Positions 16,476 to 21,215 of a stretch of 64,000 bases of DNA are shown here, piece by piece. Position 1 is the first letter of the stretch; each line of letters starts with the position of its first letter. The notes beneath the pieces are model-generated. The model did no database searches. It had not been told where the DNA came from and worked only from the letters and a program-made list of their open reading frames with translations. The stretch is from Promethearchaeota archaeon (GTDB lineage: Archaea; Asgardarchaeota; Lokiarchaeia; Sigyniarchaeales; SOKP01), in assembly GCA_016840085.1 (NCBI GenBank), contig JAEOTA010000081.1:62001-126000 (forward strand). The letters are read 5' to 3'. Position numbers and translations under genes: made by a program.

Positions 16476-17627
16476 TTAGCGTGAATCCGTTAAATATTTC
16501 ATAAATTCTTTTTTATACTCTTTTGGAAGTTTATCTGGTCTTTTTAGGTCTGAATCAGGACTTACTTTAGTTTTAATCAAGATCATAATTGGACCTTCTC
16601 GATTTTTAATATCTTCTAATGATTCTAATAATTTCTCTTTAGATTCTATTAAAATTCCTAATTTGTAATTTGATGCCAAGGCTATATTAGTGAATTTAAC
16701 ATTGGGAGAATTTGTAGGTTGACTTCCTGTAGATTCATGAACTTCATTATCTAATATAATATGAACGAAGTTTGTAGGTGAATACTTTCCAATCGTTGTA
16801 AAAGCCCCCATTTGCATAATTGTTGCTCCATCTCCATCAAATACAATTACTCTTTTATCTGGCTTTTGAAGAGCTATACTTAATCCAATAGAACTAGCGC
16901 ATCCCATTGATCCAATATTATAGAAACTTTTATTATGTTCTTTTTTTCTTGATTCTCTATACTCAAATAATTTTCTTGAAATATATCCTGTGGTAGAAAC
17001 AATAATTTCATCATTAGTTAAATTATTCATAATTAACTCTATTACTTCTTTCGTTGTCAATGAATAATTATTTAATGATTTTTTTTTCATTTCATAAAAT
17101 TGAAAGAAATTTCGTCGAAAAATTAAAGCATATGGACCATTTTCTTTCTTAAGATACTCAATTACCTTCTTAATCTCGTTTTTAATTAAAACTAAATCTG
17201 GTTTAAGGATAGTATAAGGAATTTGCAATGTATCTAATAATGGGAGCATAATTTCACCCATTTTCTTATGTTGAGGTGCATCAATTTTATCAGGTTCACC
17301 TCTCCACCCAATCATTAAGAGAACAGGAATTGAGTATACTTCTGGATCACATAATGACGTAATAGGATTGATTGTCTTCCCAAATCCAGAATTTTGCATA
17401 TAAACAATTCCTATTTTATTTGTTGCTAAATGATAACCAGAAGCAATAGCAATAGCTTCACATTCATTGCAAGCAACAACATTTTTTAGACCTTTTCCAT
17501 CATTATCAGCTAAGTATTTCATCCAATCTTTAAATGTGGAATCAGGGATTCCAGTAAAGAAAGTAAAATCAAAATTTTTTAAAATTTCAAAAAAATCCTC
17601 GCACCTAATCATTTTTATCATCAACAA
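16476..17627 (-). CDS. ppd: Phosphonopyruvate decarboxylase (ThDP-dependent)
   Basis: FFTGIPDSTFKDW, NECEAIAIASGYHLATNKIGIVYMQNSGFGKTINPITSL, IGWRGEPDKIDAPQHKKMG, ThDP motif GDGATIMQMGAF...HIILDN; adjacent to PEP mutase operon. Confidence 0.93.
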   Translation of the reverse strand: MLMIKMIRCEDFFEILKNFDFTFFTGIPDSTFKDWMKYLADNDGKGLKNVVACNECEAIAIASGYHLATNKIGIVYMQNSGFGKTINPITSLCDPEVYSIPVLLMIGWRGEPDKIDAPQHKKMGEIMLPLLDTLQIPYTILKPDLVLIKNEIKKVIEYLKKENGPYALIFRRNFFQFYEMKKKSLNNYSLTTKEVIELIMNNLTNDEIIVSTTGYISRKLFEYRESRKKEHNKSFYNIGSMGCASSIGLSIALQKPDKRVIVFDGDGATIMQMGAFTTIGKYSPTNFVHIILDNEVHESTGSQPTNSPNVKFTNIALASNYKLGILIESKEKLLESLEDIKNREGPIMILIKTKVSPDSDLKRPDKLPKEYKKEFMKYLTDSR

Positions 17628-17635
17628 ATAAAGAT

Positions 17636-18352: not shown

Positions 18353-19509
18353 CTTATATCATTTAAGATTTTCCTTAATTTTGTTTCTGTAAGTAAACGA
18401 GGATTATTTTTTACTCTTTCAGGATTGAATCCATTTTTTATAATTAATTCAATATCCTCCTGAGTCTTAATATGCAAATTCTCTAATTTTATTTCTAATC
18501 CAATATTTATTATTAAATTTCTAATAATTTCTCGTGCTTCGATAAAATCTGAAGCACCAATTATTGAAATTAGTTCTTTCATAACCTTTTTAACATATTC
18601 AACTCCACGTGAATCTATTATATCATCTTCACTCACATCTGAATTAAAGACAATCATAGAAGGTAAAGTCAAAGCAACTGCATGTCCATGAGGTATATTA
18701 AAGTATGAAGTAATAGGATATGAAATAGCATGACAAGCAGTCGTTTTTGTGATGTTTATTGCTTTTCCAGCATAATTTGCCGCAATTACCATATTATACC
18801 TAGATTTTTTATCAGGGGTGTTAACAGCTTTTATTAAATTATTTAATATAAGCTCAATTGCCTTCTTCGCATAGTTTTTTGATTCATCAGTAGAATTTAT
18901 ATTCCAAAAAGATTCAATAGCTTGAGTGAGTGCATCTAAACCGGAAACAGCAGTGTTTTTTTTCGACAAGCTGTATGTAAACTGAGGATCGACAATCACA
19001 TATTCTGGTTGTAAGTATTCTGGTTCTGCTAAAGAATATTTATCTTTATCTATGTAAACAACAGCAAAATGAGTTGCTTCACTCCCAGAACCTGCTGTTG
19101 TTGGAATCCGAATTAAAGGTATGCCTTTTTTTTTTATTTCTTTTTTTTTTACGATAAGATCTATAGGAGAATTATCATTAGTTGATAAAATTGAAATAGA
19201 TTTTCCCATATCTAAGACTGATCCTCCTCCAACAGCGATAATTACATCAAAATCTTGGCTTTTAAATAAGTCTAATCCTTTTTTTATATCATTTAATTTT
19301 GGATTTGGAGAAAAATCATTGAATTGGATATAATCATAATTTTTGAGAATCTTAAGAAGCTTTTCTTTTATAATAGTCTTCTCAAAAGAATCTTTTCCTG
19401 TTATTAGGAATATATTTTTAAAGGTATTCTTTCTTAAAATCGTCTTTAATTTATTAATAGAGTTAAATCCTAAATATTCTATCATTTTTGTGTTATATTT
19501 ATTAATCAA
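18349..19509 (-). CDS. Iron-containing alcohol dehydrogenase, candidate phosphonoacetaldehyde reductase
   Basis: GGGSVLDMGKSISIL, TTAGSGSEATHFAV, ACHAISYPITSYFNIPHGHAVALTLP; overlaps the PEP mutase stop by TTGA; operon context. Confidence 0.85.
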   Translation of the reverse strand: MINKYNTKMIEYLGFNSINKLKTILRKNTFKNIFLITGKDSFEKTIIKEKLLKILKNYDYIQFNDFSPNPKLNDIKKGLDLFKSQDFDVIIAVGGGSVLDMGKSISILSTNDNSPIDLIVKKKEIKKKGIPLIRIPTTAGSGSEATHFAVVYIDKDKYSLAEPEYLQPEYVIVDPQFTYSLSKKNTAVSGLDALTQAIESFWNINSTDESKNYAKKAIELILNNLIKAVNTPDKKSRYNMVIAANYAGKAINITKTTACHAISYPITSYFNIPHGHAVALTLPSMIVFNSDVSEDDIIDSRGVEYVKKVMKELISIIGASDFIEAREIIRNLIINIGLEIKLENLHIKTQEDIELIIKNGFNPERVKNNPRLLTETKLRKILNDIR

Positions 19510-21215
19510 ATTAATCTTTCAGCAAATTCAATATCTTTCTTATTATGAATCTCAATCCAACCTTTATGTACTTCCAAAATGTCTACTTGAAAACCTCTAT
19601 CTATTACTTCTTGTATAAGATCAACAAATGATGCTTTTTCAAATGAATCTGCTTCATGGAAATTTCCTTTGTGATTCATTTTGCAATCATTATATATCCT
19701 TCTGATTATCTCGACCCCATATTCTGAGAAGTAAGCTATTCCGGCAAATTCATAATCCGCCATGTCTTTATTAATACTCCTTCCTATTCTGAAAATCTTG
19801 TTCTTTATTTGATATAAATCTCTGGTTTGTTCACTTGGCTTACTTTTTGTAAGAACAAGTTCAAGAATTTTATCAATTTTATGCTTGTGATAAGTGTAAG
19901 AATTATCCAATACCAATATAATATCTCCTTTTGAATTGAGCAGGTTTTTTATTATTTGTTCATTAAACAATATATCAGAGTAAATAAAAATAAACCCTCC
20001 TCCCATATCCCATTCAGCTTTAAAGAGAGAATGTAAGATGTAATACTCATCATATTCATCATTATCAATGTATTTTATACCATCAACTGTAAATTCCTCT
20101 TTTTTATAACCTCTAATAACAATTATATCGTTAATACCACAATTTTTTAATGTCTCTATTTGTCTTTGGAGAACAGGCTTACTTTTTAAAAGCGTCATCC
20201 CCTTCGGAATATTAAACTCAGGATCACTTCCAGCAGCAGGGATAATTACTTTTATAGGACTTTTAATATATTTTAAATCTTTTTCTTTTACATCCAAAAA
20301 ACCAACATCTTTAAAAACGGTTTTAACTGGGCTGCACATAGATTCTGCTTCAAATGCCCTTTTATTCCTTAAAATTATTGAAGCAGTTTCCTTCATAGCT
20401 TTATGAGCAGCTCGTAAAAGATGATTAGCATATATTACTATATTAAATCCATGCTCTATTAGTTCTTCCTCTGTAATAGTATTATAAGTGGTAGGGACAC
20501 ATACTAAAGGTTTTCTAAATCCTAATTCTTTTGTTAATTTTTCATATTCTATAGCAAAATTAAGGATTTCTTTAGGATCTCTCTGTTTAGAATGAATCAT
20601 TATTCCATCTGCACCTGCTAATAAATATTTCTTAGCTCTATAAATAGCATCTCTTAATCCTGAACCTGCTATCAAGCTTTCAATACGTGCTATAATCATA
20701 AAATCATCAGAAATTTGAACTTCCTTCCCTCTTTTAATTTTTGTAGCAAATATATCCGGATCTGCTTGATCTTGGATTGTACCCCCTTCAAGGCTATTTC
20801 TTTTAGGGAATTTCTTATCCTCAATAATAACCATTGAAACGCCCATGTCTTCTAATGCTCGAATAAAATATTCGAAATTTGCAGCTTCTCCACCAGTGTC
20901 TCCATCAATTATTATTGGTTTATTTGAGCTATTTAGAATTTGTCTAATTGTTTCATATCGAGATTCAGCACCTACAAGCTCAATATCTGGATATCCTTTA
21001 GCAGCACTATCTGTAAAACTACTAGCCCAAAATCCATCAAACTCACGAATTTCATCTTTGTAGTGTTCTTTTATATTATTAGCGATAATTGCACTTAATC
21101 CGTTATGAGCTTCTATAATTCTAATAAAACTTTTTTTTTCAAGTAAATCTTTTAGCATTCTTCTTCTTACATTTGGTAAGATTCTACTTGTTAGCTTGAA
21201 TTCCATAATCACCAC
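19506..21215 (-). CDS. pepM: Phosphoenolpyruvate mutase fused to C-terminal nucleotidyltransferase-like domain
   Basis: GFWASSFTDSAAKGYPD, DGDTGGEAANFEYFIRALE, diagnostic EDKKFPKRNS (EDKxxxxxNS), IARIESLIAGSGL; C-terminal domain IIPAAGSDPEF..PKGMTLLKSKPVLQRQIE. Confidence 0.95.
   Translation of the reverse strand: MVIMEFKLTSRILPNVRRRMLKDLLEKKSFIRIIEAHNGLSAIIANNIKEHYKDEIREFDGFWASSFTDSAAKGYPDIELVGAESRYETIRQILNSSNKPIIIDGDTGGEAANFEYFIRALEDMGVSMVIIEDKKFPKRNSLEGGTIQDQADPDIFATKIKRGKEVQISDDFMIIARIESLIAGSGLRDAIYRAKKYLLAGADGIMIHSKQRDPKEILNFAIEYEKLTKELGFRKPLVCVPTTYNTITEEELIEHGFNIVIYANHLLRAAHKAMKETASIILRNKRAFEAESMCSPVKTVFKDVGFLDVKEKDLKYIKSPIKVIIPAAGSDPEFNIPKGMTLLKSKPVLQRQIETLKNCGINDIIVIRGYKKEEFTVDGIKYIDNDEYDEYYILHSLFKAEWDMGGGFIFIYSDILFNEQIIKNLLNSKGDIILVLDNSYTYHKHKIDKILELVLTKSKPSEQTRDLYQIKNKIFRIGRSINKDMADYEFAGIAYFSEYGVEIIRRIYNDCKMNHKGNFHEADSFEKASFVDLIQEVIDRGFQVDILEVHKGWIEIHNKKDIEFAERLI

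What the first reader, a model, noticed from the sequence alone, without database searches (positions are those of the whole stretch)
16476..21215. Archaeal phosphonate core pathway: pepM-NTase, Fe-ADH, NTase, ppd in one coupled operon
Seen: PEP mutase with the diagnostic EDKxxxxxNS motif (EDKKFPKRNS), then Fe-ADH (TTGA overlap), NTase (ATGA overlap) and phosphonopyruvate decarboxylase. Established: PepM makes phosphonopyruvate, Ppd makes phosphonoacetaldehyde, and a group of Fe-ADHs reduces it to 2-hydroxyethylphosphonate (HEP). I see no 2-AEP transaminase and no methylphosphonate/HEP dioxygenase in the window. Inference: HEP is the likely product, activated as CMP-HEP. A phosphonate pathway inside a surface-glycan island of a probable Asgard archaeon looks new.
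Basis: partly seen in the sequence, partly recalled or inferred. Interest (0 to 1): 0.92.

Follow-up and report, generated by a model that had tools for sequence, protein, structure and literature searches.

The report
Lokiarchaeal hydroxyethylphosphonate (C-P) gene cluster
A Lokiarchaeon carries a conserved operon that should make the carbon-phosphorus compound 2-hydroxyethylphosphonate, probably for its surface coat, and the two cultured Lokiarchaea carry the same four enzyme types, so the prediction can be tested by NMR.

Summary
In detail: PepM-NTase, Fe-ADH, NTase and Ppd lie in one minus-strand run at 16476-21215. PepM and Ppd pass curated equivalog cut-offs. One detail is probably wrong: Fe-ADH orthologues support an ATG at 19485, not the TTG that gives the "TTGA overlap".

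The PEP-to-HEP reading is well supported. The Fe-ADH orthologue occurs in 15 of 66 family genomes, all with PepM, and lies in a PepM-linked Fe-ADH clade. The genome has no AEP transaminase and no C-P lyase. A relative (G112) has PhnW and a PntC-like NTase where this cluster has Fe-ADH and NTase1: a natural swap to the AEP branch.

(1) The likely HEP activator is the stand-alone NTase1, not the PepM-fused domain, which lacks the consensus Arg. NTases near Fe-ADH have His or Tyr where PntC has its amine-facing Glu104; NTases near PhnW keep Glu (22 His versus 14 Glu). (2) Genome lengths identify two surveyed genomes as Ca. Lokiarchaeum ossiferum and MK-D1; both carry PepM-Ppd-FeADH-NTase1.

The chemistry is a known kind. 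The lineage and NTase pairing look new. Attachment to surface glycan is inference.

The parts
19506..21215 (-). PepM (PEP mutase) with C-terminal MobA-like NTase domain; probable start ATG 21206
   Evidence: TIGR02320 349 bits over cut-off, EDKKFPKRNS; fused NTase domain keeps PK lysine but lacks the GXGxR arginine
18349..19509 (-). Fe-ADH, predicted phosphonoacetaldehyde reductase; probable start ATG 19485 (378 aa)
   Evidence: Fe-ADH Pfam domains; PepM-linked clade; orthologue only in PepM genomes of the family
17636..18352 (-). NTase1, stand-alone LicC/PntC-like nucleotidyltransferase, predicted CTP:HEP cytidylyltransferase
   Evidence: Intact G-loop, His at the PntC Glu104 position; ATGA overlap with Fe-ADH
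16476..17627 (-). Ppd, phosphonopyruvate decarboxylase
   Evidence: TIGR03297 421 bits, cut-off 312.5
21406..22719 (-). MFS transporter of the GlpT/UhpC/PgtP organophosphate group
   Evidence: MFS_1 and best NCBIfam PgtP/UhpC/GlpT, below cut-offs; next to PepM in 7 same-genus genomes
22750..23514 (-). NTase2, 37% identical to the PepM-fused NTase domain but with intact G-loop
   Evidence: pairs with the MFS gene also without PepM
23684..25213 (-). Alkaline-phosphatase/sulfatase-fold protein with Thr at the nucleophile position, no membrane span; candidate phosphonyl or phosphoester enzyme
   Evidence: stays beside PepM in G116 and G119
25331..26443 (-). Glycosyltransferase (GT4-like by sequence)
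   Evidence: ORF; syntenic in same-genus genomes
26473..27279 (-). CDP-alcohol phosphatidyltransferase family membrane protein; alternative transferase candidate
   Evidence: PF01066 28 bits, cut-off 22
27627..28295 (+). NTase3, MobA-like nucleotidyltransferase
   Evidence: PF12804
28724..30352 (+). Wzx-like polysaccharide flippase (by sequence)
   Evidence: ORF; syntenic
15375..16346 (-). NAD-dependent sugar-nucleotide epimerase/dehydratase
   Evidence: PF01370 215 bits
13075..15360 (-). Large multi-membrane-span protein, GT-C-like by eye
   Evidence: ORF; conserved downstream of Ppd or epimerase

Best explanation
A Lokiarchaeal phosphonate operon of the HEP branch. PepM turns PEP into phosphonopyruvate; Ppd decarboxylates it to phosphonoacetaldehyde, pulling the unfavourable PepM step; the Fe-ADH reduces it to 2-hydroxyethylphosphonate (HEP); NTase1 activates HEP with CTP to CMP-HEP; the HEP group is then put on a surface glycan or glycolipid made by the neighbouring genes, perhaps by the alkaline-phosphatase-superfamily protein at 23684-25213 or the CDP-alcohol transferase. 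The first two steps rest on strong family assignment, the third on context, phylogeny and co-occurrence, the fourth on residue and linkage evidence. Transfer to a glycan is inference.
For: PepM and Ppd pass equivalog cut-offs. Fe-ADH orthologue (57-74% identity) in 15 of 66 family genomes, all with PepM; other Fe-ADHs there are about 33% identical. Fe-ADH tree: 35-row PepM-linked clade, 100/100. No PhnW and no PhnJ in the genome. G112 has PhnW and a PntC-like NTase in place of Fe-ADH and NTase1. NTase1 has an intact G-loop and His at the PntC Glu104 position; 22 His near Fe-ADH against 14 Glu near PhnW. Island of glycosyltransferase, flippase and epimerase genes conserved around the core.
Against: Fe-ADH passes no curated cut-off; lactaldehyde reductase and the phosphonate Fe-ADH model tie. 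PhpC and FomC were not available for the tree, and the non-PepM rows are few and all Asgard. His- and Glu-type NTases are also separate lineages, so the residue rule is partly descent. No transferase is identified. MpnS was not searched genome-wide.
Confidence: 0.7

Rival explanations
1. HEP is an intermediate: an unlinked enzyme tailors it further (for example to methylphosphonate or another phosphonate) before attachment.
For: In other organisms HEP is an intermediate of methylphosphonate, fosfomycin and phosphinothricin (PMC8931226; PMC9381506). MpnS was not searched genome-wide here.
Against: No tailoring enzyme was recognised among the listed ORFs of the window, and the core seen in relatives ends at Ppd or NTase1. 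MpnS and HepD are O2-dependent (established knowledge), which does not suit an anaerobe.
Confidence: 0.14
2. The product is AEP or another amino-phosphonate made by an unlinked transaminase, and the Fe-ADH serves another aldehyde.
For: AEP is the commonest biogenic phosphonate; the PepM-NTase of G112 in the same family serves an AEP cluster.
Against: Best TIGR03301 match in the genome is 44 bits (cut-off 360.8; G112 PhnW scores 437). The Fe-ADH is strictly tied to PepM. NTase1 lacks the Glu that faces the AEP amine.
Confidence: 0.07
3. HEP is activated by the PepM-fused NTase domain or NTase2, and NTase1 activates a different phospho-compound of the glycan.
For: Fused nucleotidyltransferases are common on PepM, and the N-fused Fom1 domain makes CMP-HEP (PMC6697681). 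NTase2 is intact and next to the cluster.
Against: The fused domain lacks the Arg needed in PntC. NTase2 is absent beside PepM in many relatives and occurs without PepM in others, while NTase1 stays with Fe-ADH.
Confidence: 0.2
4. The operon is bacterial contamination or a very recent bacterial transfer.
For: The assembly has 7.6% estimated contamination. Related PepMs also occur in Nitrospinota, Chloroflexota, Planctomycetota and Falkowbacteria.
Against: Nine genomes of the genus carry the gene, with island synteny where flanks are assembled. The Loki C-fused PepMs form one clade, 99/94. Asgard-type small GTPases lie in the window.
Confidence: 0.02

Closest known systems
HEP arm of fosfomycin and phosphinothricin biosynthesis (Fom1/Fom2/FomC; PhpC)
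   Same: PepM, Ppd and a type-III Fe-ADH acting as phosphonoacetaldehyde reductase; CMP-HEP by the Fom1 CyTase domain (PMC6697681, PMC5125639)
   Different: No antibiotic tailoring genes; here PepM is fused at the C-terminus to a MobA-like domain without the consensus Arg, and a separate LicC-like NTase1 sits with Fe-ADH inside a glycan island
PntC phosphonyl-tailoring clusters (AEP on cell-surface glycans)
   Same: PepM, Ppd and a LicC-fold cytidylyltransferase beside glycan genes (PMC6697681)
   Different: No AEP transaminase; NTase1 has His where PntC has Glu104; product predicted HEP. G112, a relative, is of the PntC kind
Thaumarchaeal methylphosphonate clusters
   Same: Archaeal PepM-Ppd-reductase route through HEP with glycan-related and arylsulfatase-like neighbours (PMC9381506)
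   Different: No MpnS seen in the window; anaerobic Asgard host
Methanocorpusculum vombati phosphonate genes (PMC10035134)
   Same: Archaeal anaerobe with PepM, Ppd and predicted phosphonoacetaldehyde reductase
   Different: Regarded there as horizontally acquired; no NTase pairing or glycan island described

Membership tests
PEP mutase (PepM/Ppm) | EDKxxxxxNS motif and PEP mutase equivalog score | tested here: met
   EDKKFPKRNS; TIGR02320 349 bits, cut-off 319.6
PEP mutase (PepM/Ppm) | Converts PEP to phosphonopyruvate | not testable with these tools
   Needs enzyme assay
Phosphonopyruvate decarboxylase | Ppd equivalog score with both TPP domains | tested here: met
   TIGR03297 421 bits, cut-off 312.5; PF02775 and PF02776
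Phosphonoacetaldehyde reductase (PhpC/FomC, cd08182) | Type-III Fe-ADH encoded with PepM and Ppd | tested here: met
   PF00465 and PF25137; linkage and co-occurrence
Phosphonoacetaldehyde reductase (PhpC/FomC, cd08182) | Groups with characterised PhpC or FomC in a tree | not tested
   Those sequences and CDD were not available; PepM-linked clade shown instead
Phosphonoacetaldehyde reductase (PhpC/FomC, cd08182) | Curated phosphonate Fe-ADH model TIGR03405 | tested here: not met
   193 bits, cut-off 423.7; the model is annotated PsrA and also scores a Stackebrandtia PepM-linked Fe-ADH only 164
PntC AEP cytidylyltransferase, for NTase1 | LicC/PntC fold with GXGxRx4-8PK motif | tested here: met
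   LicC 2e-12 and 6PD1 1e-5 matches; GIGKRLAPLTNNKPK
PntC AEP cytidylyltransferase, for NTase1 | Glu at the Glu104 position facing the AEP amine | tested here: not met
   His in NTase1 and orthologues
Active NTase, for the PepM-fused domain | Arg of GXGxRx4-8PK | tested here: not met
   Absent in the 18-row alignment; none found in a motif scan of 120 homologues, 28 of which gave no scorable motif
AEP pathway | PhnW/AepZ 2-AEP transaminase | tested here: not met
   Best 44 bits genome-wide, cut-off 360.8
Methylphosphonate pathway | MpnS | not tested
   Not recognised among window ORFs; no genome-wide search
Phosphonate catabolism | C-P lyase PhnJ | tested here: not met
   No PF06007 match; E. 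coli control positive. PhnX not searched.

The most novel reading that the evidence does not exclude
Lokiarchaea, including both cultured strains, coat their cells with HEP esters, using a so far undescribed family of LicC-like HEP cytidylyltransferases (H-G/S-D signature) that travels with Fe-ADH across archaeal and bacterial phyla and with two independent PepM fusion types.
Probability: 0.5. Interest if true: 0.78.

Novelty: new variant of a known kind. Interest (0 to 1): 0.66.

Why it matters
No paper in the searched open library links Asgard or Lokiarchaea with phosphonate biosynthesis (that library lacks most subscription journals). If true, relatives of the archaeal host of eukaryotes invest phosphorus in C-P bonds, probably on their surface, where it would matter for cell contacts and for phosphorus cycling in anoxic sediment. 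Because MK-D1 and Ca. L. ossiferum carry the four enzyme types, the claim is directly testable. The His/Glu rule in the NTases would help genome miners tell HEP from AEP clusters.

Tried and rejected
Isocitrate-lyase-group PepM: rejected. Contamination: rejected by same-genus synteny. AEP product: rejected for this genome, accepted for G112. Catabolic role by C-P lyase: no PhnJ. Sulfatase function for 23684-25213: unlikely, because Thr replaces Cys/Ser at the nucleophile position; the fold search gave generic sulfatase/YejM matches that do not name a function. Fe-ADH naming by NCBIfam: uninformative, two families tie. PDB search with Fe-ADH gave only generic Fe-ADHs. Several family scans failed on wrong coordinates and were redone in part.
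Full report
What is there. The four ORFs of the finding are present on the minus strand in the order PepM-NTase, Fe-ADH, NTase1, Ppd. PepM carries EDKKFPKRNS and passes the NCBIfam PEP mutase equivalog (349 bits, cut-off 319.6), far above phosphonopyruvate hydrolase (160) and methylisocitrate lyase (104); Ppd passes its equivalog (421, cut-off 312.5). The best solved relatives of the PepM domain are PEP phosphomutases. The Fe-ADH/NTase1 overlap ATGA is real and recurs in orthologues, but the PepM/Fe-ADH 'TTGA overlap' depends on a TTG start that most orthologues do not share; the ATG at 19485 gives their 378-aa length.

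Whose genome. The window lies in a 4.68-Mb assembly, 98.8% complete, 7.6% estimated contamination. Names attached to close PepM homologues are mostly Promethearchaeota and Lokiarchaeota. In the phylum survey 27 of 232 genomes have a PepM match, 9 of 19 in the window's genus. The window also holds Ras- and Arf-like GTPases (recognised by sequence). Where the flanks are assembled in same-genus genomes the island is largely in the same order, from the flippase through CDP-alcohol transferase, glycosyltransferase, sulfatase-fold protein, NTase2 and MFS, to PepM-FeADH-NTase1-Ppd, epimerase and a large membrane protein. Contamination is therefore unlikely.

Fe-ADH belongs to the phosphonate pathway. 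In the 66 genomes of the family an orthologue at 57-74% identity is found in 15, all of which have the full-length PepM-NTase; everywhere else the best Fe-ADH is at most about 35% identical. The Fisher value is 5e-13, which ignores relatedness. In a tree of 68 Fe-ADHs, 52 of the 53 from PepM loci separate from the other Asgard Fe-ADHs, and the window's protein sits in a 35-row clade (100/100) with Fe-ADHs beside PepM in Thermoplasmatota, Woesearchaeota, Bacteroidota, Verrucomicrobiota and Actinomycetota, including a Stackebrandtia. From memory, Glycomyces and Stackebrandtia make HEP-bearing phosphonoglycans; that was not checked in a paper. Most PepM-linked proteins have Gln in place of the second metal-binding His; a review notes variant ligands in the HEP dehydrogenase subfamily too, there at the Asp position (PMC5125639). 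Limits: the non-PepM rows are few and all Asgard, PhpC and FomC are not in the tree, and no curated Fe-ADH cut-off is reached.

HEP, not AEP. The genome has no 2-AEP transaminase (best 44 bits, cut-off 360.8) and no C-P lyase PhnJ. A relative of the same family, G112 (contig of isolate LW40_45), is a natural control: its PepM-NTase and Ppd are homologous (58 and 61%), but in place of Fe-ADH and NTase1 it has a PntC-like NTase (6PD1 match, 1e-37) and a PhnW (437 bits, cut-off 360.8). The branch enzyme and the stand-alone NTase are exchanged together, while the fused PepM-NTase stays.

Which NTase activates. In PntC, Arg15 and Lys25 of the GXG(T/S)Rx4-8PK motif are needed, and Glu104 with Glu196 faces the AEP amine (PMC6697681). 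The PepM-fused domain keeps the Lys but has no Arg in the 18-row alignment, and a motif scan of 120 homologues found none with it (28 gave no scorable motif). NTase1 has an intact motif, and His at the Glu104 position in every Fe-ADH-linked orthologue aligned. Over all PepM loci, NTases near Fe-ADH show His (22) or Tyr (10, the NTase2 type) at this position, and those near PhnW show Glu (14 of 15 scored, the other Asp); no Glu near Fe-ADH and no His near PhnW. HEP has no amine, so the change makes sense, but His- and Glu-type NTases are also distinct subfamilies and several loci are close kin, so the count reflects descent as well as selection. Inference: NTase1 is the CTP:HEP cytidylyltransferase, and the fused domain is structural, regulatory or altered in function.

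Two PepM types, one pathway. The window's PepM belongs to a C-fused clade with Thermoplasmatota, Chloroflexota, Nitrospinota, Planctomycetota and Falkowbacteria; the Loki family members form one clade (99/94). Other Asgard genomes have the N-fused, Fom1-like type (PF01467 before PepM) from a different part of the tree, yet several of them (G026, G048, G091, G095) still have Ppd, an Fe-ADH and a His-type NTase1. So the Fe-ADH/NTase1 pair recurs with both PepM types.

Cultured strains. Both carry PepM (396 and 382 bits, over cut-off), Ppd (467 and 446, over cut-off), Fe-ADH and NTase1 in one run. Their Fe-ADHs are 36-38% identical to the window's and fall outside the 35-row clade, with a Chloroflexota PepM-linked sequence.

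After CMP-HEP. The protein at 23684-25213 keeps its place beside PepM in G116 and G119, which lack the MFS, NTase2 and CDP-alcohol genes there. It has the alkaline-phosphatase-superfamily core with Thr, not Cys or Ser, at the nucleophile position and no membrane span by hydropathy; its model (pLDDT 92) matches sulfatases and YejM. Arylsulfatase-like genes also neighbour marine phosphonate genes (PMC9381506). A phosphonyl-transfer or ester-processing role is a guess. NTase2-MFS occurs without PepM in other Lokis and looks like a separate organophosphate uptake and activation module.

Verdict. A conserved HEP operon in Lokiarchaea: known chemistry, new lineage as far as the open library shows, with a probable new HEP-specific NTase subfamily. 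Enzyme activities, product and attachment are untested.

Noticed in passing
window 21406-23514; L160, L161, L162: The NTase2-MFS pair occurs in Lokis and another Asgard without PepM, so it looks like a separate organophosphate uptake and activation module.
   Followed up: partly
L150:7232-12114 (G112): A Loki AEP cluster: PepM-NTase, Ppd, PntC-like NTase and PhnW.
   Followed up: yes
L005-L009, L012, L015, L016: Nitrospinota carry the same C-fused PepM-NTase (about 50% identity) without a recognisable Ppd, Fe-ADH or PhnW nearby; the fate of phosphonopyruvate there is unclear.
   Followed up: no
L029 (Methanosphaera sp. rholeuAM74): A gut methanogen has PepM, Ppd, Fe-ADH and a His-type NTase1.
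   Followed up: no
window 50455-51657, 55739-56929, 59894-60295: Glycosyltransferase paralogues share a near-identical stretch (IDFLHGFN); the last is a fragment, next to a short adenylate-forming-enzyme-like ORF at 59496-59888, suggesting duplication and decay in the glycan island.
   Followed up: no
L159 (G136): N-fused PepM in a same-family Loki genome without Ppd, Fe-ADH or NTase1 beside it.
   Followed up: no
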